Below, one piece after another: positions 17,884 to 50,128 of a stretch of 64,000 nucleotides of DNA. The notes beneath the pieces were generated by a model. The model did no database searches and was not told the origin of the DNA. It saw only the letters and a list, made by a program, of their open reading frames with translations. Position numbers and translations under genes: made by a program. Origin of the DNA: Arcuatula senhousia (Eukaryota; Mollusca; Bivalvia; Mytilida; Mytilidae); the NCBI GenBank assembly GCA_963971305.1, contig OZ020308.1:16649092-16713091 (forward strand), written 5' to 3'. Positions within the stretch are counted from its first letter, which is position 1. Each line of letters begins with the position of its first letter.

Positions 17884-20800
17884 ATGTGGTATCTTATATC
17901 GCTGGAAAATCCAGGTCGAATAGAAATAACTGTTTATATTTAAGAAATTTCATACGTTTAAGTCATTTTTACAAATTAACAAATCAGTAACTTAATGTAA
18001 ATTTAGTTGAAAATGAAACGCACTTCCTTCTGGAATGTCCTCTTTATCAGTTTATGTCATAAATTATGAGAAAGATATTATCAATTACACTAAAAATTAT
18101 CCAAATTTATTAAATATTGATAAAGAACAATTATATATGACACAAGCTCCTGTAACGTTCATTTACGTAACTTTAGGCGAAAATTTAAATATGCTCCTGT
18201 TACTGTTAGTGTTATGTTACTTTCTACAAGGTGGTGAAAGGGCAAGTACCAGCTATACCAACTGAATTTATTAACCTACACCAAGGAAAACATCAGATCC
18301 GCCCAACATCATACGCCAACTGTGAAACAACCAATATAATCACGAGACAATCACGCGAGAACAACAAAATTGTAATAGTGCCACAAGCAAGATCAGAATC
18401 TTATAAACACTCGTTTTTCGTTAAAACAGCTTTAAAGTGGAACAACCTAGCCAACGAAATCATAAACTCGAATACAGTGGCAGCCTTCAAGACAGCAATC
18501 CACACCTGCATGCTGTCAGTGCGACTAATTACAATGCGTCCTAGCACCCGTCCTATAAGAGACCATCAATTGGTAGCCTACGACGTACCCACACAGATAC
18601 AAATACAGATATTCCGGGACAGAATAAATTCCAGACCAATTACGGATAGGGGGAACGAATCGAAAACAAATTAATGAACGTAACTGTAGAATTTAAACAT
18701 TAAAGTTATGCTAAACTCTATTTACTTGGCACAAAGAATAAATAAAGTGGATGGTAATTATCTTTTAATTATAAACCTAATATGGAATTTAAATAATGAT
18801 AAATATCAATAGAATACTTTATCATAACACAAGTAAACAATTATTTATTCCATTAATTATTCTGAATTAAGAACACAATTGCTCTTATAGCATTATTCAG
18901 TGCTTAAAGCATGCTTTGTATGTCCAATACGCTTTTTTGGAACGGTTTCAAAACAACACATTTATGATGATACCAGTTTTGGCAAATGTCATAGGCAATA
19001 CAGTCAAAAGCATGCAAGTCTGTTTTACAAGAGAAACAGTCGAACTGTGTTTTGATATTTTCTCTTTCAAAACATCTCAGGAATCATATTGAAAATGCTT
19101 TTCTACCCGTTGATATTTATATTTTGTTCAAGCATTTTCAGTGAAATATCTTCTACTGATTTCATGGATTTTCAAGATCAGGAGTCTTCTTAATAAAAGG
19201 AATAGGTCTGGTCCCAATCGCAATAAAAGAATACACATCTACTATATTCATTTTTCAACAATTAAAACAATAATTATACAATATATAATTTTTAAGTACA
19301 ATTGATTTTAGAACAAAAATTACAAAATTTAACATATCTTGTTATATATCTTTTTTTTTTATAAAATTTACAAAATCGTGTAACTAAAGCAGTATAGTAT
19401 TTTAACATTCTATAGTTATGTCAAAAGTCTGTTTTCGATTCGTTCCCCACTATCCGTAATGGGTCCGGAACTTATTCCGTCCTGGAAGTAACGTAACAGG
19501 AGCATATTTAAAATTTCGCCTTAGAGTTACGTAAATGGACGTAACAGGAGCTTGTGCCATCATTTATATGGATTATGAACAATGAAAACTGCTGTTTTTA
19601 TACGACCGCAAAAAATTTGCGGACGTATCATGGTATGATGCTGTCGTCGTCGTCGTTGTCGTCGTCGTTGTCGTTGTCGGTGTCTGTTAACTTTTTAGTG
19701 ATTCCACAATAACTTTAGTTCCAGTTATCCGATTGCTATGAAACTTGACAATGATGTTCCTTACCATAAAAGGATGAATGGGATTGATTTTGGGGGTCCC
19801 CCCATTTTTCGTTTAGAAATTATGGGCCAAAAAAGGGCCAAAAATACGACTTTTTTGTTTGTTTCCACAATAACTTTAGTTCTAGTTATCCGATTGCTAT
19901 GAAATTTGACAGTGATGTTCCTTACCATACTAGGATGAATGGGATTGATTTTGGGGGTCTCCCCTTTTCTTGTTTTGAAATTAGGGGCCAAAAGGGGCAA
20001 AAAATTACACAATAACTTTTATTCTGGTTGACCAAATGCTATGAAACTTTACAGTTATGTTACTTACAATAAAAGAAAGGACGGGGATGATTTTGGGGTT
20101 CCCTTCTTTTTTCGTTTTGAAATTAGGGGCCAAAAGGGGGCAAAAATATGAAACTTTTATTAGTTTTCCACAATAATTTTAGTTCTGGTCGACTGATTGA
20201 TATTTTATTTTTAAATAATGTTCATTACCACAAAGTTATTGATTGGCATGATTTTTTAGGTCACCCCTTTTTTGTTCAGAAAATAGGGGCCCAAAAGGGG
20301 CAAAAATCCAACTTTTTTATTTTAGGTCCGATTGTGAAAGTTTTTTTTGCTAGTTAATTTTTGTCATATATTGGATACAAAATTGAGGATAAATTTCTTC
20401 TTGACCCTTCCTTTTCTGTTTAGCAATTGGGGGTCAAGAGGATAGAAATTGAAACTTCAATTTTTTGTCTGGTTTGTGTGTGTTTTTTATATTCTTGTAA
20501 GATACAAGGATCTTAAATTTTTTTTATTTCTAAATATTCTTTGTCAGTCTATAAATTGGGCTGCATGTGACAAATATGCTTTGTCAGTCCACCATAGGAT
20601 GCAAGTGTCAAAAACTATTTACTGTCCATTTTGGGCCTAGAACCTACAGGGTTCAACATGTCGCCATGCCACGCAGGGCCAGACATCGATTGGTCTTGTT
20701 ATTAAAATCAAACACAAAAATCAAGACTGAAGAAAGGGGTGCATTTATTAATGGATAAAATCAGATATTTCCCTGAAAATCAGCCCTGCGCCCTAAAGTC

Positions 20801-23800
20801 TGGAGCGCTTTATCCTCCAGGAAATAGGGTACATATAATATGTTCCAAGATCTTGGAAGAAATACCGCTGGTTTAATTACCACACTACTAATCGCTAGCC
20901 GATGACCTCTCAGGTGATGCTTGAGTCCCACATGTAATTTACAAAAATGGGACTTTTTCAAATTTGGTACACAGCTTCAGCATGATGAGTCATACGGTGC
21001 CTCCCCTTTCCAGGTCAATCTATCATCTACTTCCTGTTTTCCCAGCCGACTTAGACTTTTTAGGGTAAAAAATTTGTAAAGTGAAATTTTTTGTAACAGA
21101 TTTCTCGGCTTCTACTGGATGAATTGGTTTCAAATTCAGTACACAGCTTCAGCATGATGAGTTATACTGTGCCTCCCCTTTCCAGGTAAGTCCATCATCT
21201 GCTTCCTGTTTTCTGTGCCAACTTAGACTTTAAATTGGTCAAAAATAGACAATTTTTTGTAACAGATTTCTCGGCTTCTACAAAAGGGATTGATTTCAAA
21301 TTTGGTATACAGCTTAAGCATGATGAGTTGTATTGTGCCTCACCTTTCCAGGTCAGTCAGTCATCTACTTTCTGTTTTCTGAATGGTGGAGTGGGGGTAT
21401 GCTTAGCAGGACTTAGTGCAACCCCTTGTTGTATTTAATGATGTATAATGAAAATATTTACAAATATATATTCATAAACTGTAATTTAGAAGAAATTAGA
21501 TTGTTATGTTACAAGTTTTTTTCTGCCAGAAGCAGCTGGACGTTTATTAGTCATGTTAGTAGGACCGATTGAAAGTAATCCTTTTTCTCTCGACTAAGCT
21601 GTGGCTATGACTATGGTTGTGGTTGTGAAGGGGTGTAACCTTATGAATTTATTATTTTTTCCCACTGCCCCACCCTGTTTTATTTGACCAGTGTTTCACA
21701 CTCCAGGAATTGGATGCTCCTCAAATTTTCACCTCCAATACTTATACAATCCAGTTACTTGGAGTGTGATGGCTCTTAGGATAATGATTCATCTTAATAG
21801 CTTTGCATCTTGTCCTTGTCTCAGCTAGTGTCAGCCAGTTCAGGGTGTTAAGCATAAGATGTAACACTGCTTGTTTGGCTGTGGTCTTTCAACACAAATC
21901 TAGTTGATCATCTCTACACGCTTTCTTGTTTCTGGATGTTAGCAACATTTGGTAAATGGATCCCATATAGTGCATGCATACTCAAGCAGCGGTCTTATTA
22001 GGGTTGTGTAACACACAGCCTTGGTGTGTTGAGGACAGTGATTTAGGTTCCTTTGAATGAAGACTTAAAGAGTTGCTTTTCTTTATGATGTTCTCTATAT
22101 GGGTGTTCAAGCTTTATACAGAGTTCCCACACCATCCTTGAATTCAAGGAAACCTGGAAAAGTCTTTGAATTTCATTTCAATAACAATCCTTGAATATTA
22201 TCAAATATCCTTGAAAAACTCTGGAATTTTGTAAAATGCAGATTTGTTGACCGTTTGATAAAAAAAAGCCGAAAAATATTAGATTATTTTAATCCTTGAA
22301 ATTGACCTCAATACCCTTGAAAAGTCTTTGGAAAATCTTTGAATTTTGTGTCCAAAAAATAGTGAGAACCCTGTTTATAATGTCTTGTGTATGGTGACGC
22401 CTAGAATCTTGGCAGAGTCTACCTGTACTAACTGATGTCCATGTATGCTGTAGGATGTTTGCAGTGTCTTATGTTAGTTGGTAATGTGTGACAGCTGGCA
22501 TTTACTGGGGTGGAACTCCATCTGCCAGTCAGCTTCCCATTCTGAGTAGGTCTAGGAGTTGGGTCACTCCGTCTGTCTGTCCGTCCGTTGCGTTAAGGTG
22601 TGCCTGTCTTGTGTAATCTGAATCTCAAAAACCAAACACTAGATCTTTCTGAAATTTTATACAGTGATTACATATATATTGAAGATGTGCACCTCCCCTT
22701 TTTGGGTCATTTTATCATTCCGTTTAGAAATTACGGCCCTAAAGGGGCCAATAAAGGGATTTTTTTAATTGTTTTCACAATGTTGACCAAATGCTATGAA
22801 ACTTTACAGTAATGTTACTTACAATAAAAGAAAGGATGAGTCCCACACCTGTATGCGATTAGGTTTGTCAGTTAACTGCCCAGACCAAGGTCAGTGGTTT
22901 CCTCTGGGATCTCTGATTTGAAAATTGACTGCTCTATTTGGACAAGGTGTGTTGAAAAGGGTGTTAAACCCTAACAAACACACACACACACACACACATT
23001 GTAATGAAATGTATAGAGCATTTCATGATTGTGGCTTATCTGATATACCCTAGTCTAGAAGCAGTAAAATACAGCATTTGAATAAATTAGAGTCATGATG
23101 GACACATTTTTACAAGGCCTTTGTATAAAATGCTTCACCCCATGAAGTAATATTTTCTTTAAGATAATTCTTTTCAATCAATTTATCAGGATCATGGTGG
23201 ACACATTTAAAAAGCTTTTGTATAAACTGCTTCACTCTATCAAGTATTTAATTTTCTTATAGACAAAAAGTATGTCCTGCTCACTGACCATGTATACGTG
23301 GTGGGTAGAAAAAGCTGTGACATAATGATAGCTGGTGATGCCGCTGTAAGCCGCAAGCATGCACAGTTTGAACTGGAATATCCTGAAGTTCACATAGTAA
23401 GTATAAGGTGTGACATAATGATAGCTTGTGATGTCGCTGTTAGCCGCAAGCATGCACAGTTTGAACTGGAATATCCTGAAGTTCACATAGTAAGTATAAG
23501 GTGTGACATAATGATAGCTGATGATGCCGCTGTTAGCCGCAAGCATGCACAGTTTGAACTGGAATATCCTGAAGTTCACATAGTAAGTATAAGGTGTGAC
23601 ATAATGATAGCTGATGATGCCGCTGTTAGCCGCAAGCATGCACAGTTTGAACTGGAATATCCTGAAGCTCACATAGTAAGTATAAGGTGTGACATAATGA
23701 TAGCTGGTGATTCTGGTGTTAGCCGTGAGCATGCACAGTTTGAACTGGAACATCCTGAAGCCCACTACCTACCCTTAAGTATAAGGTGTGACATAATGAT

Positions 23801-26800
23801 AGCTGGTGATGCTGCTGTTAGCCGCAAGCATGCACAGTTTGAACTGGAATATCCTGAAGCTCACATAGTAAGTATAAGGTGTGACATAATGATAGCTGGT
23901 GATGCCATTGTTAGAAGCAAGCATGCACAGTTTGAACTGGAACATCCTGAAGTTCACATAGTGAGTACAAGTTGTCGTATAATATTGGGCTATGCTGATG
24001 CTGTCAATAGTTACAAAAATAAAAAAACAATTGAATGCTAGGACATTCATATGATCACATTATAATTAAAAGAATATTGATGTTGTTAATTCATTATTCT
24101 CCAAACTTTGAAAAATAAAGATACATGAATACATGCACAAAATAGTTAATTACTTCACAATTTTATAAAACTAATAAATGTGATGACTCTCTTACTTTCT
24201 TTAGTTACCACACAAAATTTGAAAAAAAAAAGATTTACAAACTACAATTTTTCCATAATTCTCTCAAGGACATTGAGTGTTGGTTTAAATAAATAAAAAC
24301 AAAATTATTGTTGACAAATTCTATTTTTATTACAGGGTCATCCACAGAAGCCACCAAAAGTTAGTTTGACAGATCTTTCGAAGTTTGGTACATCTGTGAA
24401 TGGTGACAAGCTACAGACTAACCAAACAAAAGTCCTAGAGGATGGAGATGTTGTCTTGTTTGGGAACAATTCAAGTTTTACGTAAGATTTTGTATGGATC
24501 GTTGCCTATAAATAAATGAATGATTTTTTTAATTTGACCATCAAATTAAAATATGTAGCTAAACATCTTAAAAAAAGCACTTCTACATAAGAAGTCGATG
24601 AATTATTGTACCAGGCCCATATGACAAATAAGTGTTCTTGCACCAATGCAAGTCTTAATCATTGGGAATTAAATTATTTCACTGATCCCAGAAAACCAAA
24701 CAATTGGAACTTGAAAAAATATTATTTCACAGTAAGTAAAATGTTTATGCACATTTCTATTTATCAAAATGAACAAAATTTGAAAGCATTATGTTTATTT
24801 ATTTTTATAGTTTGATGTATGAGCCATTCATCATTTCATCGTCATGTTTAGATCAACCCTCGAAAAGAAAAGTTCGGGAATGGTTACAGGTACTTGGTGG
24901 TCACATGGTCAATGACTGGAAAAAAGAATGTTCATTACTAGTGATGAACAATATTAGTGTTACTATTAAGGTAAGGTGTGTCGAATACTGATTCATGGTT
25001 CCATATATAGTCACGATAATCATGACATCTTTCAAGGGTTTTGTGTAAAAAAAAACAAATAAGCAAAAGCTTTCCAAAAAGCAAGTTATTATACAAGAAT
25101 ACAAGTTTATTGACCAATTATGGACCCTCAAGGGGCAATGACAGTTCAAACAGTAATGGTTAAGAATTGTATACATTGTATCAATTTTAGATAAAGAAAC
25201 TATTACAATTGAGAGTAAAGTTTTTATATCAGGTATATAAGTATGAATAAGATTATGGTCAGTCAAAAAAATGGTATTTGTTATTTTAGATTTTATGTTA
25301 TCTCAGACTTCATAAACCTTCCACAAACAATCAATACAAAAAGTTGTCAAGAAATCACCTTGTTTGTCTGTCTACATAGCTCATAAGCACAAATCCTCCT
25401 AAATCTGATGATAGATTTCGATAAAGCTTTACAAGAAGGAGGTACATCATATGGAGATGTGCATTAAGAATTTTCATTGCTCTTGGGTATTTTTCAGGGC
25501 AGATAACTGGACTTTTATTTTCGAATGAAGAGTTATAGATCAAGCAGAAAGTATACTATTGAGAGATTGCTTATGTAGTATTCCTTGTTTGAACTGTATT
25601 ACACATATCAATTATTATACAAATTTTTTGACACACCTGAAGAAGTCTGAAATTTTTATTTTTTTTAAACAGTTGAATGTCATGCTTATCAGTACCAACT
25701 ACTTTTTAAGTAAATATAATTTTGTAGGTAGTTTGTGCCTTATTGTCCCTGAAGCCTATAGTCACTCCAGATTATATTGGACATTATATAAAGCATCTGA
25801 AAGGTGAAGGTCAGAAGCCAAATCCAGATTTGTAAGTATGTTCAGGGGGTCCAATGGAATTGGTAAGTGCGCAGCATAATTTGGTAAGTGACTATAAAGA
25901 TGGCGGAAAAACCTCGCTTCGATCGACAACGGTTAGTTTTCTCTTCGTGTTTACAAAAGTTATACGCATCTTATGAATAAAACCATGTTGCCTTTCGGCA
26001 ATTATGAGTAATGAGAAATAGTACAATACAAAAATTTAATGCTTGATTTGCTTATTAAAAAGCTATTGAAGAAAAACCGACCACTTGACAGTAATTTTTT
26101 TGTCATGCCGAAAAAAACAGGCTTTGTTTCAGGTACTCTGATCACAAACGTAAGGTTTTATGGTGTTTTGTGGTTCGTCAACAAGCATGGATATTCCCAA
26201 ATATTTGTTTCTGTAAAAGAAACATGTATTTGTTGACATATTTACAATTATTTTATTTTTTGGTAAGTGCAAGTCGGTGTACTAAACAAAATTGGTAATG
26301 AATATTATCACAGCGTAAACATCTTTATTCATTGCGTTAACGTTTAAATGAGATAGATGTTTTTTGATTTCCGATTCATTTCTATTCTACTACATGAATC
26401 TGTTTAGCAGGCTGAATCAAATAACTTTGATTTTTCCGACAAAGTACATGAACATGTACATATTTTCTGGTTATGTTAATTTCACATTGCCAATTCGGTT
26501 ACCTTGCTATGATGAGTATGGTCTTGTGTTAAATTAACACTCTAAGTTTTATTTTAAAAGGCATACTAATACAAATAAGTTTATGATCAATGTGAAAACC
26601 TATACGAATTAAATGTAACTAATTTTTCGAGCTTTTTGTATTTAAAAAGAGTTTGAAAGTATCACTTACGACATATGTTTGAAGCAAAGAAGGTGCTCTT
26701 TTAATAATATAGTTCAGCTTTGACCACCAAGGAAACCAAGGAAAATGGCATTAGCCAGATGGCTGGTTTTCCAACCGATGCCAGTACATAAACATTTGGA

Positions 26801-29800
26801 CTATAATGTCACAATACAATGGGAATCTCCCTAGTTCTGATAGAACTGCTAAATTTGTAGTCTGTTTAGAGAACCCTGACAGAAACTTACAAAATTTCAT
26901 GTTAAGCTTTTCTTGTTCCCAATCTTTGTATATTTCATACAAATTCAATTGTTTTCTTTTTGGTGTTACGTTTGTAATCCCCCAGTTCTCGCACCCATAT
27001 AAACAAATGGGTTTGATAGTATGATAAAAAATGTGAAGGAGAACCTTAATTGATGGAGATACCACCTTCATGTCTCTATATAGTTTAAAACTGGCTTTTA
27101 ATGCCTTTTCATATAACTTAGACTTAGCTTCTGTAAAACGGCAAGTTTTGTCGACACTATACTAAGATATTTATAGCTTTTTACACATTCAATCTTTTAA
27201 ATGCCGATTAGAAATTCTTCATCTAATAATTTACCAGAGTTATTAAATACGACAACTTTGGTTTTGTTAATATTTATATCTAGACACCATGTTTTACAAT
27301 ACTCCTGCAAAATATCGAGTTTATTTTGTAGACAGTCACATCTTTTAGAATCGGCCATCAAGACTAAGTTGTCTGCATACAACAAGCAAGGGATTTTCCT
27401 GTTATCTAAAGTAACTGATTCTGACTGATCTAACCATTTTTGTGGTAAATCATTAATGAAAAATTTGAACAAGTTAGGGCTAGGTACGTCGCCCTGTCGT
27501 ACACCAACCTTGGCAGCAAAAAAATTGTCAGTTTGTTGCCCACTTTGATGCATAAAGTATCATTTAAGTACATATTTTTTAGTTTTCTATAAAAATAACC
27601 ACTAACATTTCTTTCAAGAAGTTTGAACATAATTCCGAACATGGATAACTCTATCAAATGCCTTGCGAAAATCCACGAAGCAAGCATATAATCTTTTATT
27701 CCCTTGTTTTCGATATTTATCAATTATACATTTCAACACAAATATGTGATCTGTGGTACCAGATTGTTTTAAAAAAGCCAATTTGACTTTCATGTATTAC
27801 TTTATTATCTAACAAAAATTTGTCAAAGCGATTACAAAGTATTATATTAAAGAGTTTCCCAATACTATTATTAATAGCTATACCTCTATAGTTTTCTGGC
27901 TTTAGTGGATTTTCACTTTTATAAATTGGACATATATAACTTTTGGACCATTGTTCCGAGTACTGACCTGACCTAAAGACAGCATTGAACAGCTTCAACA
28001 GATTTGGGTTAATATAGGATTGTGATGCCTGGAGCATATCATTACTAATATTATCAAGGCCAGGACTCTTATTATTCTTAATAAGAAAGCAATCGGACAC
28101 ATCAAGATTAGAATACCCCCCCCCCCAAAAAAAAAAATCGATAACAAAAGAAATATTATGCAAAGTATTCAAAAGAAGTGCTTTCAAAAGTTTTTGCACT
28201 GTAATAATATACATTACCATTTTTTTTAGTACACTAACTTGCACTTACCAAACAATTAAATAATTGTAAATATGTCAACAAATACATGTTTCTTTTACAG
28301 AAACAAATATTTGGGAATATCCATGCTTGTTGACGAACCACAAAACACCATAAAACCTTACGTTTGTGATCAGAGTACCTGAAACAAAGCCTGTTTTTTT
28401 CGGCATGACAAAAAAATTACTGTCAAGTGGTCGGTTTTTCTTCAATAGCTTTTTAATAAGCAAATAAAGCATTAAATTTTTGTTATGTACTATTTCTCAT
28501 TACTCATAATTGCCGAAAGGCAACATGGTTTTATTCATAAGATGCGTATAACTTTTGTAAACACGAAGAGAAAACTGACCGTTGTCGATCGAAGCGAGGT
28601 TTTTCCGCCATCTTTATAGTCACTTACCAAATTATGCTGCGCACTTACCAATTACATTGGACCCCCTGATGTTGAAAAAAAGGGATTTAGAGTAGCTTAT
28701 CAGAGTTCAAAATTACTAGCATTTGTAAGTGCTCTATGAATTGATATTCAAAATGTATGACAGATATCTAAAAAAAAAACCAAATCTTTCATAATTGATT
28801 TATTTTGTATTAAAATAAAAAGGTTATTTAGAGGAAAAAATATCCAACATTTGTTATTTATTCATGGGGGTGTCACAGCCCCCGCCCCCGGAATACCGAA
28901 TACCGTTTAAAAAAGGACAGAATACCCTTAAACAGACTGGAATACTGAATACTCTAAAGATCCTGGCGTAGGCATACCAAAAGCCTAAAAATACGGAACA
29001 TCGCGTACCGTGTACCACACCTTGGCGTACCGAATAACCTTTAAAAAGCACATAATACGGCGTACCAAAAGGGCTGTGACACCCTCATTCATCCTACAAG
29101 AATTCTTACAAAATTGAATTTAAAATTACTTGAGTCAAATGAAGATACAAATAATATTTTTTGTAACCATTTTTCATCGACTACTTATCACAGTCTCTTG
29201 ATATTTAGTATCCAGCATCAGTATATAGTATAGTCCATTTGAGTTCTATAAATCAACGAAAATTCTTTTAATTTTTTTTGTCTCTCAAATAAAATTTATT
29301 TTTTAAACACAAATAAACTTTTTATTAGTATACGAACTCTGATAACAAAAACAAAAATGTTATCTTCACAAACAAAAAAGTTTTCCATATGGTCTAATGC
29401 TAAATATTTCACCGATTTTAATAATACCTAAAATGGTGTGTTTATCTGACGGAACAGCTAGGTGTTGAGCCCACCTGAACATAATTGAAAGGACTAACAA
29501 TAGGAGATTAAATGACCAATTAGCTCCACAAAGGATTTTTAAAGGTATACGGAGCAAATGCTGTTCCTGGTCACTAGGTTGTACTCCCGTGGACTTCTAT
29601 GAATTTTTGGTCCATTTTTACTATTAAGGTCTATGGAAAACATTTTTATTAATCATGCAAAAATTTTGAAATTTTATGCCTGAGTTTGTATGTGACATAC
29701 TAAAATAGTTAAAATATTTTGCAAGACGTAAATTTACAAGCCATTTTTCGTTGATTTATAAAACTCAAACGGACTATACCATATTGTGGGATTTGATTTC

Positions 29801-32800
29801 AGGGGGTGTCACTCACCTACTTCCTTTGCAACAAAATTTGGCCACATTCATCTTTGACACATTTTCATGATTTTATCACTCAATGATTGTCAATGTGAAA
29901 CTTCTTATGTTTTATATTCATTTAATGAGCAGGGGATATTTGTAATTATCGGTAATATGTACATTTTTCCTTAGATGTGTACTGGCTGATAAAGTCTGTC
30001 TCACGAACAGGTGTGTATCACCGAAATTATCGGGTCAGTACGTTACGTCACAATTAATTAAAAATAAATAAAGAGAATATATGACTTTTTGATTTTGAGA
30101 TTGACTTTATCACTTGTTTTTTTGGTTCACCCTTCGGGTTCACCAAAACAAGTGATAAAATCGATCTCAAAATAAAAAAGTCCTATATTCTATATTGATC
30201 GGTAATTAGCGGCTTTTTCCTTTGATCTTATATGCCTGATATTTTTAGTATCATGGACAGTCCGTAATACAAGAAAATATCAGGTGGAAGCACTTGATAA
30301 CTGTGACATCATGCTATGAAATGTGACCTTATTTGTGACGTCATTTGAAGTTATTGCACTGAAAACTTGTAAAATGTGTGTGTTTTTACTTACTGATAAA
30401 AAGAATATTATATTCCTATCAGACTCGTCTGATACTCACCTAGATATAGATAGTATAAAAAAGGAAAATGAAGGCATCAATTTACAGGTTTTAAGTTTAA
30501 AATTGATGTTTATTCTTACAGGTTCTTGCCAGTGATTACAGAGACTCAAGTAGATACCAATGAAGTGTCATTCACTGTCAAACCAGAAAGGAGAACGGTC
30601 TTCCAGGGAAAGAAATTCATATTTCTCAATGAAAAACAGGTAGATTAACTTCTTTGTACTTTATAGTAAAAAATAAAACTCAACATTATTATTTTCAAAG
30701 CAGTTTGATTCAGGCAGAATTTGTAGGGATCTTTTATTTCAGTCGATAAAATTACATAAGACAATAATAAATAATATTAAAAAAACAAAGGGGCATTGAT
30801 AATGCACGTAAACCCTACATGTAAAAAGGAAGCATTTCTTAACAAGACATTTAGACAATTTGCAAATATTTTTCCTTGTAGTTCAAAAAGATGCACATGG
30901 CTGTGGAATTAGGTGGAGGACTTCCTGTTTTATTGGAGGAGAAGTATCAGACAGATAAGATGCTTGTAGAGAAAGACTCCATAGTGATGCAATGTGATCC
31001 TAATAACTGTACACAGATGGCTTCACAGGATAGTCATAACTGGATACTACATGTACAGGCATTCCTTAGGAAGTAAGTCACCAGTCATAACTGGATACTA
31101 CATGTTCAGGCATTCCTCAGAAAGTAAGTCACCAGTCATAACTGGATACTACATGTTCAGGCATTCCTCAGAAAGTAAGTCACCAGTCATAACTGGATAC
31201 TACATGTTCAGGCATTCCTCAGAAAGTAAGTCACCAGTCATAACTGGATACTACATGTTCAGGCATTCCTCAGAAAGTAAGTCACCAGTCATAACTGGAT
31301 ACTACATGTACAGGCATTCCTCAGAAAGTAAGTCACCAGTCATAACTGGATACTACATGTTCAGGCATTCCTCAGAAAGTAAGTCACCAGTCATAACTGG
31401 ATACTACATGTACAGGCATTCCTCAGAAAGTAAGTCACCAGTCATAACTGGATACTACATGTACAGGCATTCCTCAGGAAGTAAGTCACCAGTCATAACT
31501 GGATACTACATGTTCAGGCATTCCTCAGAAAGTAAGTCACCAGTCATAACTGGATACTACATGTTCAGGCATTCCTCAGAAAGTAAGTCACCAGTCATAA
31601 CTGGATACTACATGTTCAGGCATTCCTCAGAAAGTAAGTCACCAGTCATAACTGGATACTACATGTTCAGGCATTCCTCAGAAAGTAAGTCACCAGTCAT
31701 AACTGGATACTACATGTACAGGCATTCCTCAGAAAGTAAGTCACCAGTCATAACTGGATACTACATGTTCAGGCATTCCTCAGAAAGTAAGTCACCAGTC
31801 ATAACTGGATACTACATGTACAGGCATTCCTCAGAAAGTAAGTCACCAGTCATAACTGGATACTACATGTACAGGCATTCCTCAGGAAGTAAGTCACCAG
31901 TCATAACTGGATACTACATGTACAGGCATTCCTCAGGAAGTAAGTCACCAGTCATAACTGGATACTACATGTACAGGCATTCCTCAGGAAGTAAGTCACC
32001 AGTCATAACTGGATACTACATGTTCAGGCATTCCTCAGAAAGTGAGTGTTGTTTGCATCCTGCACAAATGTAGCTATGACTTTATATCTTTATCATGCTG
32101 CTGTTGAGGTTTATTATTATTTTTTTTTAGCAACCACTTAAAATAAAACTTTTAATATTTTTCTTTAAAAATTTTATGAACTTTAACTTCGCCCTACAGA
32201 TTTACTTGGTCCAACATATTGGACCATAAAAGGAGTCTCAATATATAATTGCTACAATTATTTTTTATCCCATTGGCAACTCATTTGGATTCATTTACTT
32301 TTGTGGGTACCTGTTATTGTGGTTTGATAAAAAAAAAATCAGTTCATGGATTCTTATTATTGCGGTTCTGAAGTCTGAAGCATACAGATTTATTTCAGGA
32401 GTATCAAAATTTTAGGTCTAGGCCATCCATAAAAGCCATTGAAATTGATAGCCCAAGATAGTAATGAAACTGCATTAGTTTTCTTTCCCATTGCATTTTA
32501 TTTCTGTATAGGAAAAAGAAAGTTAGCTTGTCATTGTCTTTTACAGACACAAGAAGCATATGATACAGGATGCAGAGATTGGGTATGCTGTGTTGTACTG
32601 TTCTACCGAGAAACATTGTAATCCTGATATAGAGATTGGTAGGTTATTACTGTATAAAGTGGTTTTTTTTGCTGGTATCTAATTTTCGCTTTATTCGCGG
32701 TAGTTGGCTATTCGCGAAAATGAAATCCCGCGAAAATAAATTCTCGTATATTTTATATATATCCTAGTACAACCAATAGTCGTCCAGTGATTAGCAATAC

Positions 32801-35800: not shown

Positions 35801-38800
35801 AAAAATTTATTTGTGGTCCGATTTTGAAATTTTTTTTGCATGTTTGTTCTTGTCAAATAGCGGATACAAAATTAAGAATTAATTTTTGCGACCCCCCCTT
35901 TTTTCCCCTATTACATAATTAGGGGCCAAATGGGGCCACAATCGAAACTTTTATTTGTGGTCCGATTTTGAAATTTTTTTTGCTAGTTTATTTTTGTTGA
36001 GTAGCGAATCCAAATTTGAGAATTTATTTTTGCGACCCCCATCCCTTTTTCACCTGTTACGTAATAAGGGGCTAAAAGGGGCGAAAGCGAAACTTTTTTA
36101 ATTCTTGTCCGATTTTGATAATTTTTTTTGCAAGTTTATTCTTGTCAAGTAGCAGATATATTTTTGTGTCCCCTTTTTATACTGTTACGTTATTAGGGAC
36201 CAAAAGGGGCCAAAATTGTAACTTTTTAGCTCACCTGACCCGAAGGGTCATGTGAGCTATTGCCGTCACTTGGCGTCCGTCGTCCGTCCGTCCGTCCGTC
36301 CGTCGTCCGTCGTCCGTCGTCCAACTTTTCAAAAATCTTCTTCTCTGAAACCGCATGGCCAAATGTAACTAAACTTGGTAGGGTTGTTCTATAGTATGTC
36401 CTTTACAAAACTATCGTTCGGATTTTTGATTGGATGAACAACATGGCCGCTGTGGCAAAAAATAGATTATAGGGGTAAATTGCAGTTTTTTGCAAATAAC
36501 TCAAAAACGGTAACAGATATCAAAATTCTGGCATAGGGTAAAAGTGATCAGCACCTCAAGATCTACCTGCTCAGTAATTTTCAAGAAGATCCAGCAACCG
36601 ATGTAGGAGTTATTGCCCTTTTTCTGGATTTTTTCAAAATTTTGCACTTATTTAGCCCTATATCTTGAAAATTATACAAGATATTTTAAAAATTCAAATT
36701 GCATATGATTGAGCACATCAAGATCTACATTTCATGTAATTAGGTCAAAGCTGTAGAACCATTTCTTTTAGGAGTTATGGCCCTTAAAGCGTCAAAATTT
36801 ACCGTTTTTCATTACTTTTCCCCTGAATTTCAAAGATTAACTTGTCTGACACCATATATCCAACTTCAACCAAACTTGGCACAGTTGTTAAATAGCATAT
36901 ATGCTACAATTCTATCGTTCAGATTTTTGATTCATAAAAAAATATGGCCGCCATGGCTAAAAATAGAACATAGTTCTAAATTGCAGTTTTTTACTAATAA
37001 CTCAAAAATGGTTACAGATATCAAAATTCTGATGTGAGACAAAAGTAATCAGCATCTCAAGATCTACCTGATTTGAAAGTTTCAAGAAAATCTAACAACC
37101 GATGTAGGAGTTATTGCCCTTTTTCTGGATTTTTTCTAAATTTTTCACTTGTTTAGCCATATATCTTGAAAACTATACAAGATATTCCAAGAATTTAAAT
37201 TGCATATGATTAAGCACATCAAGATCTACATTTCATGTGTTTAGATCAAAGCTGTAGGATCATTTCTTTTAGGAGTTATTGTCCTTAAAACAACAAAATT
37301 TACCATTTTTCATTACTTTTTCCCTGAATTTCAAAGATTAACTTGTCTGACACCGTAAGACCAACTGCATTTTAACTTGGCACACTTGTTTAATAGCTTA
37401 TATGCTACAAATCTGTAGTTCAGATTTTTGATTTGTCAAAAAACATGGCCACCATGGCTAAAAATAGAACATAGGGGTAAATTGCATTTTTTGCTAACAA
37501 CTCAAAAATGGTGTCAGATATCAAAATTGTGCAAGAATAAAAAAAGATCAGCATATTAAGATCTACTGTGCTGAAATTTTGGGAAAGATCTGACTGCTGA
37601 TGTGGGAGTTATTGCCCTTTTTCCTGATTTTTGCCAAATTTTGCACTTATTAAGCCCAATATCTTGAAAACTAACCAAGATATTTCAGAAATTTAAATCA
37701 CATATGGTTATGCACAATAATATCTACAAAATATATGTGTCTGTGTAGTTCAGGTGAGCGATTCAGGCTCCTGGGAGCCTCTTGTTTATTTTGGTCCGAT
37801 TTTGAATATTTTTGTTTGCATGTTTGTTCTTGTCAAATAGCGGATACAAAATTAAGAATTAATTTTTGCGACCCCCCCTTTTTTCCCCTATTATGTAATT
37901 AGGGGCCAAATGGGGCCAAAATTGAATCTTTTATTTGTGGTCCGATTTTGAAATTTTTTTTGCTAGTTTATTTTTGTCAAGTAGCGAATCCAAATTTGAG
38001 AATTTATTTTTGCGACCCCCACCCCTTTTTCACCTGTTACGTAATAAGGGACCAAAAAGGGCCAAAATTGTAACTTTTTTATTTCTGGTCCGATTTTGAA
38101 AATTTTTTTTGCATGTTTGTTCTTGACAAATAGCGAATACAAAATTAAGAATTAATTTTTGTGACCCCCCCTTTTCCCCCCTATTACGTAATTAGGGGCC
38201 AAATGGGGCTTTTTTATTTGTGGTCCGATTTTGAAAAAAAATTTTGCAAATTTATTCTTGTCAGGTAGCGATTCTAAATTTAAGAATAAATTTTTGGGGC
38301 TGTAATCATAATTTTAAGAAAATTCTGGTTTGATTTTTAATTTTTCCCCAAACATTATTCTTTTAAAGAGTAGAATACAACATTCAGAATTTATATTTTT
38401 ACCCCCTGGGTCGAGAGTCCATCAGAGAAGCATGTGTCAAAAACCTTTGTCAGTCCACCATGGGCTGCATGTATCCAGAACAATAGACTATCCATATTAG
38501 GCCTAAAACGTACAGAGTTCAACATGTTTCGGTCGTATCATGCTGCGCTCGGCGAAGCTTTTTATTGCATGTGCTCGACGTTGACTATTTTGTCCCGGGT
38601 TCTTGTAATCGCTTAAACTGCTATTTGCACTTTAAACTAGGTGGTGTTCCAAACTCTGGGCATGTTTAGTTGTGTTTAGTGCCGTATTTGGTTTCTTTGT
38701 TGTACTCGTTGCCCCTAGCAACTCTTAACATTTGTCAAAAATTTAGGGACAAAAATACGCAAAAATCGGGGTTTCCTCCTTTTTTTGAACGTTGCCAGTA

Positions 38801-41800
38801 GTCGAGCTTTCGGTTCAGGTGAAACGTGACATGTATGAAATGAAAGCCCGAAAACAGTCCTTTCTTTTAAGACCAAATAAACCTATCCGACTTCGGCTCT
38901 TTTTTCCACTAAAATTGTTCATACTTAAAAATCTAAAAATAGCACACTTAAATTTAAGCTCATACGCTGGTCACCATGCACAGCCGAAAGCGACGCTTTA
39001 TGATCATTGGTATTGATTTTTTCGAAATTATTCTTTAAAACAATAACCGTGGATCGTAATTTTTATATAACGGGTCCAGATTTTTTATTTGTCTTGTTTT
39101 AAGACCAAAACGAATCAATATTTTCATTTAACAAAAAAGTTCACAGGGGCCACATACGAAAACAATGCTGTGAAAAAATCCTAATTGTGGAGTACTACCT
39201 TAATTCAAATAATTCTAAAAATGTTTATAAAAAAAATATTTTTCTATCAATGTGTAACAATGTGTGTGAGTCTGAGAAGAGGTTAATAAGAAATTTATAA
39301 GGAGTGGCCTAAGTCTCCATTTTATACTATTGTTAATGATTAATTTTAAAATCCAACAAACATTTATATGCATGGAACATAACAAAAAATAACCGAAAAA
39401 ATGAATTTGCAGTTTTACCTTTGACAGCAGGGTTGAAAGTTATGCTTAGCACACTGCTTCCTTAGTATGCTGGCTGTGACCCACTTTTATCTACAGGAGT
39501 GACCAATTATAATTGTATCTGCTAATCGACAATACTACATAGCAAGTTTTTTCAAGTAAATATTTAATTACTTGTAAATGCTGTACTGATTTTTTTTTTG
39601 GATCTTTTTCTTAAAAAATAGGTAGTCAAGTCCTCAACCCAGTACAGTCACAGTCACTATACAATACAGATGTTTTGGTGGCCAACACTGAGGTGTTTCC
39701 CAGCAGGTAAAAAGGGGGGATGATTTAACTCAACCCAGTACAGTCACAGTCACTATACAATACAGATGTTTTAGTGGCCAACACTGAGGTGTTTCCCAGC
39801 AGGTAAAAAGGGGGGATGAAATTAACTCAACCCAGTACAGTCACAGTCACTATACAATACAGATGTTTTAGTGGCCAACACCGAGGTGTTCCCCAGCAGG
39901 TAAAAAGGGGGATGATTTAAGTCACAATTGCTATATAATACAGATGTATTAGTGGTCACAACTGAGGTGTTCCCCAGCAGGTAAAAAGGGGGGATGATTT
40001 AACTCAACCCAGTACAGTCACAGTCACTATACAATACAGATGTTTTAGTGGCCAACACTGAGGTGTTTCCCAGCAGGTAAAAAGGGGGGATGATTTAACT
40101 CAACCCAGTACAGTCACAGTCATTATACAATACAGATGTTTTAGTGACCAACACTGAGGTGTTTCCCAGCAGGTAAAAAGGGGGGATGTTTAACTCAACA
40201 CAGTACAGTCACAGTCACTGTACAATACAGATGTATTAGTGGCCAACACTGAGGTGTTTCCCAGCAGGTAAAAGAGAGATGATTTAACTCAACACAGAAC
40301 AGTCACAGTCGCTGTACAATACATATGTTTTAGTGGCCAACACTGAGGTGTTTCCCAGCAGGTAAAAAGGGGGGATGCTTTAACTCAACACAGTACAGTC
40401 ACAGTCACTGTACACTACAGATGTTTTATTGGCCAACACTGAGGTGTTTCCCAGCAGGTAAAAAGGGGGGATGAATTAACTCAACCCAGTACAGTCACAG
40501 TCATTATATAATACAGATGTTTTAGTGGTCACAACTGAAGTGTTTCCCAGCAGGTAAAAAGGGAGGATGTTTTAACTCAACCCAGTACAGTCACAGTCAC
40601 TGTACAATACAGATGTTTTAGTGGCAAATACTGAGGTGTTCCCCAGCAGGTAAAAAGGGGGGATGATCTAACTCAACCCAGTTCAGTCACAGTCACTATA
40701 CAATACAGATGTTTTAGTGGCCAATACTGAGGTGTTCCCCAGCAGGTAAAAAGGGGGGATGATTTAACTCAACCCAGTTCAGTCACAGTCACTATACAAT
40801 ACAGATGTATTAGTGGCCAATACTGAGGTGTTCCCCAGCAGGTAAAAAAGGGGGGATTTAATTTTCTTAATTTAATAGAGAAGTAAAGGAAAGCAGTCTC
40901 AAGGTTCACCATATAATATGCCAAAGATCTAGCATCATTCAAGATAGAATATGCATCATTTATATATATTTCAAAAGTTGGGGACTATTTTATGCTTACA
41001 GTCAAAAGGTTTATACAAACATATTAAGGCTTACAATTATTGTGCTGTCTGATGAAATTTTATGTTACATCTATCAATGAATTATATTACCTGTTAATTC
41101 AAACACTTATCTATTTAATCCATTGTGATCATATTCAAAATGTTATGAAGTTTGTCTTATAGCTACCTTCTGCAGGTTCCTTTTCCAAGTCTATATTATA
41201 TTACTCATTTGTTCTGGTTTTAGGTCACCAACAAAGATTAAGAAAAAGCAATGTGAAACAGTTTTAGATGAAACAAAGTTAGAAAATAAGGTATTTTGAT
41301 ACAAATAGAAATTTGGATAAAGCCTCTGAACCTTTTGGTCAGTTTATGTAAATATACCAACATATGATATCTATTTGGCTTGTAATTTTTATAAAATTCT
41401 AAATTTCACAACATGAATAAAAGTATGGGCTTTTAAAGAGAAAATGAAATCTGTCTAAATTTAGTCAATAATGTAATATTTTACAAAATTCAAGGAATGC
41501 AAATTTAAAGAGGTGCTTGCTTGAATGCCCTACTTAAAACAACAGCACAAAATTTGGCACCAGCAAAGATTAACTATACAAGACATAAAGAATAGCAATG
41601 GGGGAGGGGCATCCAAATGACAGGAATCTAAAAGGGCAATGACAAAACAGCCAATACAAGCAAAACAACAGACAGCATTTAAAAAAAGAAACAACACACA
41701 CACACACACATAAAAACCTTGTTGCAAACAGCAATGCTGTGACAAGAGAGTAACCATAATATTTACAATATATTGATGTCCAGTTGTTTAGGCCAATATA

Positions 41801-44800
41801 AGAAATATCCTAGATTCTCATCCCTCCAGCTTATATTTTTTTCAGCCCCCTGAAATTTTTTTTTGGATTTTTTGGCAATTATTTCAATTTTTGCTCAATT
41901 TCATTAAAATGGCTACATATTTTATCAAAATGGATAAAAAATAAAAATAAAATTTGCCAGCCTGCACCAAATTTTCAAGGAAATAGGATGAGAACCTAGG
42001 AATTATTTTATCATGGCCTTAAGGTTGTTTTTTTACTAATGAGTCTTATATTTATACCATGTCATTACAAGTCATTACTTTCCAGAAATGTTCACAGACA
42101 CATTTTTCTGTTAATATTGTTAATGCACTTTTTTTCTCTCCCCAATTTTACAGACCTTGCCTTCAAAAGAAGTAAAAGTGAAACAGGAATCAAAGACTTC
42201 TCCACCAGAGCAGACGACAAGTTCAAGGTCAATGAGGTCAAATAAAAGGCAAGTTATCTAATCACCAAAATACATCATCATAGCCCTTGGAAGAGATGAT
42301 TATCTAAAATGATGGACCATGACTAGGGTTATCTCCCTGTGGGCTGTAGCCAAATGGATACAACCCTAGTGTGGTTTCCAATTTTGATATCCCTCTAAAT
42401 AGTTCTAGTATAGTTGATGTTGATTTCTTAGGCCACACAGAATTAATTACTTGTTCTTCGGATTTTTTCCCCCCAAAAAAGGAGCGAGCGAGCGATATTT
42501 TTATTTTAATTTTTTTTATCAAAATTCTGATTTTTTGGAGCGAGAACTTTAGATTGAAGCGAGCGACAAGTTTTTATTTTTTTTCAACAAATAATTTTTT
42601 ATTTACAGTGTTTTTTTTTTCAAGCGAGCGACCAGTTTTTTTGTTCATTACATAATTTATGTGTAGTTTTCTTAATATAACAGTGAAAAGAATCTGAAAT
42701 ATCATTCTCACACCTATATTGTACTGTAAATTCTTGAAATAATAGATCTGAGACATAATAAGAGAAATATTGAGCATGGTATTTGATCGATAGACAGATT
42801 GATAGATTAAATGTTGTTTTTTTTCATTTAAATATTGAAGCAGTGTGATCAAGAATAATAAAATCACTCACATAAAACTATCTGTCCTTATTATAACAAA
42901 AACTTTTAAAAAAAATCAGTAGCAAAAGTTTCTTTTAACATGTAAAAAATAATCAAACAATAAAAATATTTCACAACACTTGTATAAAACATACATGTAC
43001 CCTCTATTCAATTTCTTAAAAAATCAAGACATGGAATAAAAAGTGCATATCAGAGTATTCTCTTTAATTCACTCTTATATCTGACTAGCTTTTCAACAAA
43101 GAAACTATTGTAAACATGATGTTTTAATATGCATACACATTCAGTTAAATTTATCACTACAAGACTTAGTCTTAATTTCTCTAGATCAACAGGGTTGTCT
43201 ACAGTTGTTGGTGGGGACAACAAATTCAATGTACTTACAGGAAAAGTCGATGCATGACTGTATGGTCATATTTGGTGTTACCAAGATTGTATTGTCAGGA
43301 CCTTTCCCGTTATCTTTTATTTTTATTTCCGTAAGATCGTCATAGTCATAGTTTAGTCCCGTGCGGGCCCGGATGCGCGAATAGGCCCGCAGCAGAGCCT
43401 AGCTTGTCGTAAGAGGCGACTAAGGGTCTTGGGATTCTGACTTCGGGTCATTGCTCAGCCCACAGAGCGACCAAGTGTGTACCCTAGGTGGCTGAATAGG
43501 GTGGCCCTCGTCCGCGGGGGTTGTCAGGTCTATAATACAGAAACCCTGACCGCCGACCATAGTGGGCCAACGTGTGTGGAGAGTGCCACGCTTCATGCAC
43601 CTAAAAGACCCCTTTGTGGTCCGCCAAGTAGTGCACCACATAGGCTTAATTTTCCGCCCCTACCCACCTCTCCCCTTTTCCTGTGGTTCTTCAAAATTTC
43701 CGGTCCTTTGTTTCCCATCCCACACCCAAATTTCATTTATCATCATCATTTCATGTTCATTTTATCACCCTTTTCATGTTCATCGCCTGTAAATAACCTA
43801 TATAGGGTTGCACGGGCGTAAAACACCAACTCACTCACTCGTCATAGTTTATGTGAGCAATAGTGGTCCTGACCGACGGCTTATTTTGCAATGTTTTAAA
43901 CAAATCTCGGATCTATGAATGTGTCATCGGTGGAACACTCAACTGCCGTGCTAAGAACAATAGCTTTACATTTTCCAACAACGGAATCCACAACTATAAA
44001 TTGTTTTGAAGCACTAGCCATAATCTAGGGTCATAATTTTTCACGTTTTCCTCTGTTTTGTTATTGTTAGGTTAATTTACGGCATTCTTTTTACTGTAAA
44101 TTTCGGCATTTTTCAAACGCGGAGAAGATTTAAAATTTTACTTTACAGTTTTAAAATCGGAAGCGGGCGGAACCGATTTAGATGCGGGCGGAGACAAATT
44201 ATATTTTTTTCTCGAAAATCAAATATAACAAGCGGGCGGTCCGACGAACAAGTAATTAATTCTGTGTGGCCTTAATTGAATGCTCTGTAGGTTTACTGCT
44301 TTTATGTGTCTTATGGAAGAATTATAGAATTGGAGATTATGAGAACAATTAAACTGAAAAACTATTGACAGTGCAGTTCTAAAATTTTTACAGTTGTTAT
44401 GCAGCATGTCATGATGTGCATGATAAAATTTCATGCAAATCTATGATATGAATTTTGAAAAAGCTACACAGTTTGATAGACAAATGTAGACTTTGAGAAT
44501 TGGACATTTGAATACTAAAACTCGAAAACTATTGACAGTTCTGATTTTAGCAATTGCTATGCTGCATATCAGGGTGTACATATAAAACATTTCATGTAAA
44601 ATTGTTAATAATTTTGAAAGCACTTAGATTATTGCTGACAGGGCCCTTTCTGACTTTGTCAGGATTCTAGTTTCAAGCATTTATAAGCGCCAGGATTTTT
44701 TTAAAAGACACGTGCATCCATTGTCTTTTTTTCTATCAAAAAGTTTTTTCACCTGCATCGTCAAAGGTGAAAGCTGTTCCAAGTGTAGTGTCGCTCTTAC

Positions 44801-47800
44801 ACTCTTAATGTCCGTCTGTCTTGTGTAATCTGAATCTCAAAAATCAAACACTAGATCTTTCAGAAATTTATTTTGAAACTGAGCTATAGAATGTTTATTA
44901 AATGTGGGGTATTTTGTTGTTCTCCATTGCAGAGGTCGTGGTGTGGAGGAAGAAGAAGAGGAACATCATGTTACACCATTCAAAAAGAAAATAAAGCAGG
45001 AAGCCCTTACACCAGCTGAAAATGAAAGTGAAAGTAGAGCTGGCACAAGGACCTCCCCTAGGTCTAAAAGAAACACTTCGCAAATTGCTTCACATAGTAG
45101 GTCACCCAGTCCAGCATCAAGATTATCTGCAAGAAATCAAGGGGCATCTCAAAGAGGGAAAGTTAAAAAGGAGATAGTTGAGGATTCAGATGAAGAGATT
45201 GTTGAGAGGAGAAAAGCTGTTGTAGTGGCAGACTCTGATGATGAATTCAGTAATATTGAGAGTAAGAAAAAAGGAAAACAGACAGTAGCTTCCAAAACTA
45301 TGATATCTGACGAGGAGTTTTATGAGGTACAACCTAAACAAGAATCGAAAAGTACCAAAAAATCAACACATATTGTTTCTGACTCAGATGATGATTGGAA
45401 TAGTACTAAATCAGTTCAGAGAAAACCCCTAAAGAAAGAAGCTTCTCCTACACCTAGATCAAAATCAAAACAGGGAAGTGATTCAGATAATAAATCTTCA
45501 CAGAGGCAGACCAGGAAGAGCAAAGTTCTGGTTGATGAGTCAGATGATGACATAGAACATCTAGGAACAAGAACAAAGAAGCCTTCAGTCGAAAATTCTG
45601 ACGATGAATTTGATAGGCTGATGGGTAGGGCAAAGGGCAAGAAGAGCAATAAAGAACAAAAAGTTAAAAGTCCAACTAAACAGACTCCAATAGACAATTC
45701 TGATGATGAATTTGATAGATTGATTGGCAGTAAAGCAAACAATGTACCATCAAATGAAAGTCGTAATGGACATTCTGGAGATGGTTCTCCTAAACCTCAG
45801 GAGGAAGATATGGACGCAGAAGATAATGATAGAAATGATAGGCATATTAAGGTGTGTTTAGATGTAGCTTTGCATCTCATTATAAATCCAGTCTGCTACT
45901 TGTATGGTAAATCTAGTAAGACTGTTCTGGTTTATGTAGAATTTATATAAGTAAAAGATGATTTAGATATGAAATACCAATATTACTAATACCAATATAC
46001 TGTAGAAGCAGTAATATTGGTGAGGGATTAATTTCCGTTTATTTTGTGGGTAAGAAAAATCCACGAAATTAAATCCCCACGAATTTAAAATATTTAGTGA
46101 AAGAGTGTATATCAAAATTAGAAACCCACGAAAATTTGTCCCCACCAATTCAGTTTTGTGCTCAGTTTTTGTAATCAGTAAATCAATAGAAACTCACGTC
46201 AGAACATGAGTGAATGTAGGTGCTCTTGAAGAGAAAGCTTTTTCATATCAATATTTGCTCAAATTCATGCAGGGTAATTCAGCTGGGAAAGGCAGTTATT
46301 ACAAAAAAATCATTGGTAAATGAAAGCCTGTAAAAGTATTTTTCATCTGAAATTAATATACACGCAGGTTTAAAAAGTAGCTACACCTGAAAAGGCATAA
46401 GTACTTTTCTTCTTCAGATTAATGGTAAGAAGGCAGTGAATAATTTTTTTTTGTTCCACTCTCTCTCAGGCTTCTCAACATATCATTTCAGACAGAACCA
46501 GAAGAAACTGGCAACCAGAGAGGATTTGTGTCAACTAATGGAACTGAACAGGTATATACATTTTAAAAAACAGAATTTCATGATACCTCACCAGAGTAAG
46601 TGATAAATATTTGTCCATCACTCACATACTTCCTTTTGGTCTAAATCTGGTCATTTTTGACCGACAGATTTTGTTGAATTATTGCACTCAAAAATTAATG
46701 AAACCACAGTTATTTTTATTTATGATAAACTTCCTTTTTTAGGGAAGTAAAGAATCAGGCTATACCAAAGACGATGACCTGCCATCTAGATGTATCAACA
46801 TACAGTTCACTGACCTAGTGATTAGAAGGCCTCCAAAGCAGACGTCAGAATTGTCTACACAGGGGGTCCCTGAGGGGTTTGTTAAATGGAAGGGAAAACT
46901 TGTCAGGAACTTCAAAAAGTTCAAAAAGGTGAGGACAACATAGAGGGTCCCTAAGGGTTTGTCAGATGAAATGGAAACTTGTCAGGGACTTCAAAAACTT
47001 CAAAAGGTATCTTTTGATGTTGTGCTAGCACAATCAATACAGTGTTCCAGTCAGGATTTGAAAAGGGCAGGGATGAATTTTAAAAAAGGGCACATTCATG
47101 CGTTGACTTCATCTTTCAAAAGGGCATACAAATGTAGCTAATAACAATCAAATACAGCATACATTCTTTTTAACAAACAAACATGCATTTTTAGGCTTAA
47201 GGGGAGCCTCTTGTTTCTAAAACAAGACTTTGGGCTTTTCATTACATTCATACATTCTATCAGTGCAAAAAAGCTTGCTGCAGCAGTGCCTAGCTTGTCG
47301 TAAGAGGCGACTAAGGGTCTTGGGATTCTGACGTCGGGTCAGTGCTCAGCCCATAGAGCGACCAAGTGTGTACCCTAGGTGGCTGAATAGGGTGGCCCTC
47401 GTCCGCGGGGGTTGTCAGGTCTATAATACGGAAACCCTGACCGCCGACCATAGTGGGCCAACGTGTGTGGAGAGTGCCACGGAAATCATGTCCTACCATT
47501 TTTAAGTTTAAAATTGAAGTGTCATTATGACGTCATAATTCTAGTGATTTTAGAAAAACATGACAAATTATGAGAAATTTTTCTCATTTTCAAGGTCCAT
47601 TTTGGACCAGAAAACAATGTCCACACGTGAGAAACAAGTTCATATTTATGTCACCTGCAACGTGTTGCAAAGCGACTAATAGGAGTCACTTTGACACTAT
47701 CTGTCGTCTCGCATTGTCTTGCGTCCGGCGGTGTCGCAGTTTTTCCGGCAACTACATGTCACAGCCTATTGATATTTGGTATGTAGCTTCCTCCTATAGT

Positions 47801-50128: not shown

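What the first reader, a model, noticed from the sequence alone, without database searches (positions are those of the whole stretch)
17884..50128. Four separate exon-tail plus splice-donor tandem duplications in one DNA-repair gene
Seen directly: at NBN exons 2, 7, 9 and 14 the 3' end of the exon with its 5' splice site is tandemly repeated (93 bp x7, 51 bp x20, 96 bp x13, and one decayed copy of about 80 bp). The units are unrelated in sequence; what they share is position across the exon/donor boundary. Four such events among 16 donors of one gene, and none seen in the neighbouring OSBP or MZT2 exons, is unlikely to be random minisatellite birth. Inference: either donor-containing segments of this gene are duplication-prone (for example through co-transcriptional R-loops or repair slippage), or arrays of decoy donors are tolerated or used to tune NBN splicing.
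Basis: partly seen in the sequence, partly recalled or inferred. Interest (0 to 1): 0.9.

Follow-up and report, generated by a model that had tools for sequence, protein, structure and literature searches.

The report
Repeated exon ends inside introns
In a DNA-repair gene of a mussel-like genome, four exon ends with their splice signals are repeated in tandem, up to 20 times, and the same kind of array sits in other genes of that genome; the gene is predicted to splice from the first copy, so the extra copies would be tolerated intron filler of a kind already known from amphioxus.

Summary
The gene is nibrin (NBN): 17 exons, 860 residues, 16 donors. Tandem copies of exon tail plus donor follow exons 2 (93 bp x7), 7 (51 bp x20), 9 (96 bp x13) and 14 (about 79 bp x2): 4 of 16 donors, 0 of 16 acceptors. 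They are not confined to NBN. A blind 290 kb sample of the same genome holds at least three more, two of them in one transporter gene; dynein searches show two among 200 exon-level matches. Tandem triplets of two consensus donors give 696 and 598 matches against 26 and 53 for reversed motifs; acceptor triplets show no excess (83 against 188). Counted as distinct loci the contrast is weaker. The class is known: "mirage" minisatellites of amphioxus, and the human CBS 31-bp VNTR. Most likely they are local tandem duplications tolerated because the first donor is used: in arrays 2-4 later donors meet a stop, array 1 copies show no coding constraint, and relatives' proteins lack repeats. Not seen in the papers searched: four in one gene, donor bias in a bivalve genome, units ending 6-22 bases past the donor, and synonymous-biased variation suggesting that units cycle through the exon. 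Tuning of NBN splicing has no support. No RNA was available.

The parts
17884..50128 (+). nibrin (NBN) gene, 17 coding exons, 860-residue product
   Evidence: spliced frame; Pfam; PDB nibrin match
23263..23396 (+). exon 2 (FHA) with its first donor ATA|gtaagt
23312..23975 (+). array 1: 93-bp unit x7; 85 exonic + 8 bases past the donor; 6 of 7 copies keep a donor; in frame throughout
30882..31072 (+). exon 7 with its first donor GAA|gtaagt
31032..32047 (+). array 2: 51-bp unit x20; 41 exonic + 10 bases past the donor; 20 of 20 copies keep a donor; TAA in exon frame at copy 1 donor
39622..39706 (+). exon 9 with its first donor CAG|gtaaaa
39633..40857 (+). array 3: 96-bp unit x13; 74 exonic + 22 bases past the donor; 13 of 13 copies keep GTAAAA; TAA in exon frame at copy 1 donor
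46743..46928 (+). exon 14 with its first donor AAG|gtgagg
46857..47005 (+). array 4: decayed two-copy repeat, about 72 exonic + 9 bases past the donor

Best explanation
Four of the 16 donor boundaries of this nibrin gene carry tandem copies of the last 41-85 exon bases plus the 8-22 bases that follow the exon; these are mirage-type minisatellites that probably arose by local, microhomology-assisted tandem duplication and are likely tolerated because the first, exon-proximal donor is predicted to be the one used, which would leave every extra copy inside the intron. Shown: the anatomy, the donor-only placement in NBN, the stop codons behind the first donor in arrays 2-4, the repeat-free homologous proteins, a second gene of the genome read as letters with the same arrays, and the excess of donor-motif triplet matches over reversed motifs. 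Inferred: the duplication mechanism, the use of the first donor, and that the array turns over by unequal exchange or conversion that includes the exonic copy, so that selection on that copy filters variants shared by several units. A donor duplication keeps the correct site first in the transcript whereas an acceptor duplication puts a wrong site first; that difference is the likely reason why donor-type arrays prevail.
For: Donor-1 product is an uninterrupted 860-residue nibrin; the later donors tried (3, 2 and 1) stop at residue 296, 355 and 801 in arrays 2, 3 and 4, and MFS-gene units of 52 and 67 bp shift the frame. Mytilus trossulus nibrin (P0004, 77% over residues 1-330) and a nibrin from a 2,661-base contig (P0005, 75%) run through all four junctions without repeats (6 of 23 hits were aligned). 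Array 1 copies show no coding constraint (4 synonymous, 13 not). Array 3: variants shared by two or more copies 8 synonymous to 2 not (p 7e-4), private ones 4 to 6, as neutral. Array 2: first and last copies are the most divergent (3 and 5 differences, the other 18 have 0-2), typical of minisatellite turnover. Other genes: L003 7287-7700 and 8679-8950, L004 minus strand, dynein C15:5018149-5017859 and C2:20011766-20012113 (no letters read). Donor triplets 513+183 and 429+169 against reversed controls 22+4 and 5+48; acceptor triplets 36+47 against 80+108; outside arrays the single motifs are no commoner than their reverses (7 against 11; 20 against 23).
Against: No RNA evidence from this species. 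U1 pairing does not favour the first donor: copies score alike, and the last donor of array 2 is stronger (-7.6 against -5.6). The triplet counts are match windows, and long arrays count many times: by distinct loci CAGGTAAGT has 7 in the first 100 of 696 rows, its reverse 5 genome-wide, 2 of them in the same 246 Mb (p 0.09); the acceptor motif has 16 loci genome-wide. No triplet place was read as letters, so that those arrays lie at exons is unproven. Acceptor-type duplication also occurs (L030, 1 of 8 MFS-gene acceptors). A selection filter alone does not explain why units end 6-22 bases past the donor (p 3e-5 under uniform placement, post hoc, seven arrays). The synonymous excess rests mainly on array 3, with variants collapsed by hand; one MFS array shows 0 synonymous to 1 not.
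Confidence: 0.68

Rival explanations
1. Donor arrays are functional: repeated U1 sites or alternative donors tune NBN output, for example by sending part of the transcripts to decay.
For: Donor motifs are intact in 39 of 40 copies of arrays 1-3; later donors in arrays 2, 3 and 4 would give early stops; donor-motif triplets are in excess genome-wide.
Against: Intact copies follow from homogenisation alone (array 2 copies differ at 0-3 sites apart from the last). Units are unrelated in sequence and occur in unrelated genes. No RNA seen; amphioxus mirages are reported not to disturb splicing (PMC3087553 and PMC3902484, passages).
Confidence: 0.1
2. Co-transcriptional recognition of the 5' splice site makes the DNA there break or slip, so duplications start just behind the U1-paired bases; donor bias is mutational and not a filter.
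For: In 7 of 7 donor-type arrays read the part past the donor is 6-22 bases and at most 23% of the unit; in array 2 and both MFS arrays the sequence shared with the native intron stops at +6 or +7 (read by eye); the human CBS repeat also ends at +7 by its notation.
Against: Seven arrays, noticed after the fact; the lower bound of 6 follows from keeping donor 1 intact. No test of transcription, R-loops or germline expression was possible.
Confidence: 0.2
3. Array 1 is a coding repeat that lengthens the FHA domain by 31 residues per copy.
For: The frame is open through all seven copies, and the five later donors lie a multiple of three from the first.
Against: 4 synonymous to 13 non-synonymous variants, as expected without constraint; one copy lost its donor; the six relatives aligned lack it, as does the partial M. 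edulis protein; the same kind of array elsewhere has units of 52 and 67 bp.
Confidence: 0.05
4. Assembly artefact.
For: Arrays are hard to assemble; no reads were available.
Against: Copies in array 3 differ by about 10%; similar arrays occur at unlinked places.
Confidence: 0.04

Closest known systems
Mirage minisatellites of amphioxus (Adh3, globins BflGb6 and BflGb9, troponin C, PGBD5)
   Same: Minisatellite-like tandem repeats across an exon-intron boundary, many with AG/GT signals, units of 10-160 bp, reported not to disturb splicing (passages of PMC3087553, and PMC3902484; Canestro 2002 not held).
   Different: Bivalve-like genome instead of cephalochordate; four in one gene, all at donors; donor-motif triplets in excess genome-wide; splicing and length instability not tested here.
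Human CBS 31-bp VNTR, c.1444_1467+7(16_21)
   Same: Exon tail plus donor repeated 16-21 times; 24 exonic and 7 intronic bases by its notation (passages of PMC2630376).
   Different: One array in one gene; alternative use of its donors is recalled from Lievers 2001, which is not held.
Intron creation by internal tandem duplication (Rogers model, cited in passages; Gao and Lynch recalled)
   Same: Duplication of a segment holding splice signals.
   Different: No new intron is needed for the predicted product.
Internal tandem repeats at exon-intron boundaries of human segmental duplications (PMC2812944, abstract and passages)
   Same: Minisatellites at boundaries that can change splicing.
   Different: Recent paralogues with about 30-bp units; here one Nbs1_C match in the genome, so NBN appears single-copy.

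Membership tests
[quoted passage not shown]
   4 of 16 NBN donors
mirage minisatellite | most units carry the splice signal | tested here: met
   6 of 7, 20 of 20 and 13 of 13 copies
mirage minisatellite | concerted evolution with divergent edge copies | tested here: met
   array 2 only: 3 and 5 differences at the edges, 0-2 in the other 18 copies
mirage minisatellite | regular splicing undisturbed | not testable with these tools
   no RNA; only indirect support from relatives' proteins
mirage minisatellite | length instability between haplotypes or somatic | not testable with these tools
   one haplotype held
mirage minisatellite | both 5' and 3' boundaries affected | tested here: inconclusive
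   NBN 0 of 16 acceptors; one acceptor-type two-copy case in L030
intron creation by tandem duplication | a new intron relative to homologues | tested here: not met
   indirectly: the spliced product is collinear with relatives; intron positions of relatives were not compared
coding tandem repeat | copies constrained as protein | tested here: not met
   array 1: 4 synonymous, 13 non-synonymous; arrays 2 and 3 hit TAA

The most novel reading that the evidence does not exclude
Active 5' splice sites seed DNA duplications: in this bivalve genome minisatellites are born at exon ends, with their intronic edge right behind the U1-paired bases, so that splicing recognition leaves a mutational footprint that acceptors do not, and the exon then acts as the selected template from which the array is renewed.
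Probability: 0.2. Interest if true: 0.8.

Novelty: new member of a known kind. Interest (0 to 1): 0.55.

Why it matters
Boundary-spanning minisatellites have been reported gene by gene, in amphioxus and at human CBS among the papers seen here. A genome where they look common and donor-biased makes an open question testable: is the exon end a mutational hotspot, or only a place where duplications are forgiven? It also bears on how decoy donors are ignored by the spliceosome, on intron gain by duplication, and on gene annotation in bivalves, where such arrays can be taken for coding repeats or extra exons.

Tried and rejected
Coding repeat in the FHA domain: rejected on synonymous/non-synonymous counts. 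Ab initio scan for boundary arrays in 107 arrays: too strict; it passed one L003 array and L004, missed the NBN arrays and the other L003 array, and gave one doubtful L030 hit; not used for rates. Myosin (PF00063): 94 matches, 65 of 242 candidates scored, no short tandem tail; two pairs of overlapping matches (C5:58927675/58927841 and C5:58928725/58929146) were taken for alternative exons, from recall. Dynein AAA_8: 87 matches, none clear; overlapping pairs at C5:25702079/25702584 and, with stops, at C7:29565707-29566321 stay ambiguous. These tables were read by eye, and short units like array 2 cannot show in them (array 2 did not show). In the blind sample only arrays with a donor-like word in the unit were inspected: L005, L007, L008 and L009 look repeat-like and L023 shows no evident exon (by eye), so the count of three is a lower bound. 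One MFS donor (e4) scored 26 against a best shuffle of 25 and was not counted. A third donor motif (CAGGTGAGT) did not complete. In one search two later donors were entered slightly off (23862 for 23868 in array 1; 39899 for 39900 in array 3); the array 1 list is corrected, and the array 3 stop lies upstream and is unaffected.

Full report
What is there. The window lies at C6:16649092-16713091 of a 1.036 Gb assembly. The gene at 17884-50128 is nibrin, with one Nbs1_C match in the genome, 17 exons and an 860-residue frame when the first donor of each exon is used; Pfam and PDB matches agree. The closest nibrins found are from Mytilus (M. trossulus 77% over residues 1-330), so the genome is taken to be that of a mussel-like bivalve; the species was not determined.

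The observation. Three arrays and one two-copy remnant sit across the 3' ends of exons 2, 7, 9 and 14. A self-alignment test against shuffled queries finds tandem copies at 4 of 16 donors and 0 of 16 acceptors (Fisher p 0.05). Random placement of the 10 arrays in the gene yields four or more donor hits with p 0.0014, uncorrected for the fact that the gene was picked for its arrays. OSBP next door has 0 of 6 donors and 0 of 5 acceptors.

Consequences for splicing. Array 2 and 3 donors carry TAA in the exon's own frame, so a later donor stops translation at residue 296 or 355; the second donor of array 4 gives a stop at 801. Array 1 is open throughout and adds 31 residues per copy. Its copies show 4 synonymous to 13 non-synonymous variants against the exon, as expected without constraint, and one copy has lost its donor. 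Six of 23 homologues found were aligned. P0004 (M. trossulus) and P0005 (from a 2,661-base contig) run through the four junctions without repeats; the other four show no repeats either, but the scallop P0012 cannot be judged at the last junction. The first donor is therefore predicted to be the one used; no RNA was available to show it. Pairing energies with U1 do not single out the first donor: copies score alike, and the last donor of array 2 is stronger (-7.6 against -5.6).

Variation among copies. In array 3, variants shared by two or more copies are 8 synonymous to 2 not (expected synonymous share 0.27, p 7e-4), private variants 4 to 6; one fixed difference was dropped and one complex change collapsed by hand. 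Array 2 and one MFS array show 3 to 0 each, the other MFS array 0 to 1. Pooled over five arrays and without fixed differences it is 20 of 41 (p 0.001). The later copies of arrays 2 and 3 cannot be translated in frame, so the reading is that units pass through the exonic position and are filtered there. This is inference, and it leans on array 3.

Not confined to NBN. Of 29 stretches of 10 kb fixed in advance by coordinate (290 kb, one of them the start of C1), L003 and L004 hold donor-type arrays, at least three in all; only arrays with a donor-like word were inspected. L003 is an MFS transporter gene (MFS_1 5.7e-24); with the next 10 kb (L030) it has arrays at 2 of 8 donors tested and a two-copy duplication at 1 of 8 acceptors tested. 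L004 rests on one open exon-like segment without a family match over its cut-off. Dynein AAA_6 shows two donor-type tandem tails among 113 matches: C15:5018149-5017859, whose copies end where other dynein matches also end (profile position 25), and C2:20011766-20012113, whose copies end with the profile, so that the exon end there is assumed. AAA_8 shows none clear among 87, myosin none among 94. Seen at protein level NBN has 2 of 16, against 2 of 294, p 0.014; the methods differ (own sequence against family profiles) and NBN was chosen for its arrays. So the phenomenon is not NBN's alone; whether NBN is truly richer is open.

Genome-wide motif test. Three copies of CAGGTAAGT at 40-70 bp spacing: 696 matches, reversed motif 26. 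AAGGTAAGT: 598 against 53. The acceptor TTTTTACAG: 83 against 188. Outside arrays in 325 kb the donor words number 7 and their reverses 11, the acceptor word 20 and its reverse 23, so word abundance does not explain it. These are windows, not arrays. By distinct loci the first 100 rows hold 7 for each donor motif (of 696 and 598 rows); the CAGGTAAGT reverse has 5 genome-wide, 2 of them in the 246 Mb compared (p 0.09); the acceptor motif has 16 loci genome-wide, and loci of its reverse were not listed. So the donor excess is large in matches and only suggestive in loci. Where these arrays lie relative to exons was not read.

A regularity. In all seven donor-type arrays read, the part of the unit past the donor is 6-22 bases, at most 23% of the unit; uniform placement would give this with p 3e-5. 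In array 2 and both MFS arrays the sequence shared with the native intron stops at +6 or +7 (read by eye), as in the human CBS repeat. At least 6 is needed to keep donor 1 intact; why so little more is unexplained, and a break or slip behind the U1-paired bases is one reading.

What it is. Such repeats are called mirages in amphioxus (PMC3087553 and PMC3902484, passages only), where both boundary types occur and splicing is said to be undisturbed; the human CBS VNTR has the same anatomy (PMC2630376, passages). The NBN arrays meet the tested defining features and are filed there, with splicing and instability untested. The verdict is a new member of a known kind, with features not seen in the listings searched: several in one gene, a donor bias in a bivalve genome, and a short edge past the donor.

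Noticed in passing
42249-42254: The exon 11 donor is GC instead of GT (AAAAG|gcaagt), a likely GC-AG intron.
   Followed up: no
25845-28670: Intron 5 holds a stretch of about 2.8 kb whose two ends look inverted-repeat to each other, with a reverse-transcriptase-like open frame on the minus strand at 27720-28244 (by eye).
   Followed up: no
18210-18674: 154-codon open frame in intron 1 that looks like the end of a retrotransposon gene (by eye).
   Followed up: no
L030 2932-3131: Acceptor-type two-copy duplication of about 103 bp (intron tail plus exon head) in the MFS gene.
   Followed up: partly
6399-7281: 63 bp x14 array (98% matches) outside any exon recognised here; open on the minus strand over 317 codons.
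   Followed up: no
L001 679-827, 3731-3879, 6782-6930: Three alike 149-bp arrays spaced about 3.05 kb at the start of C1, a long-period satellite.
   Followed up: no
L030 about 6700-9900: Satellite-like array of short units beside the MFS gene, seen as recurring open-frame words.
   Followed up: no
31032-32047 and 23312-23975: In both arrays the last copy alone has GTGAGT where the other intact copies have GTAAGT, possibly the ancestral intron start.
   Followed up: partly
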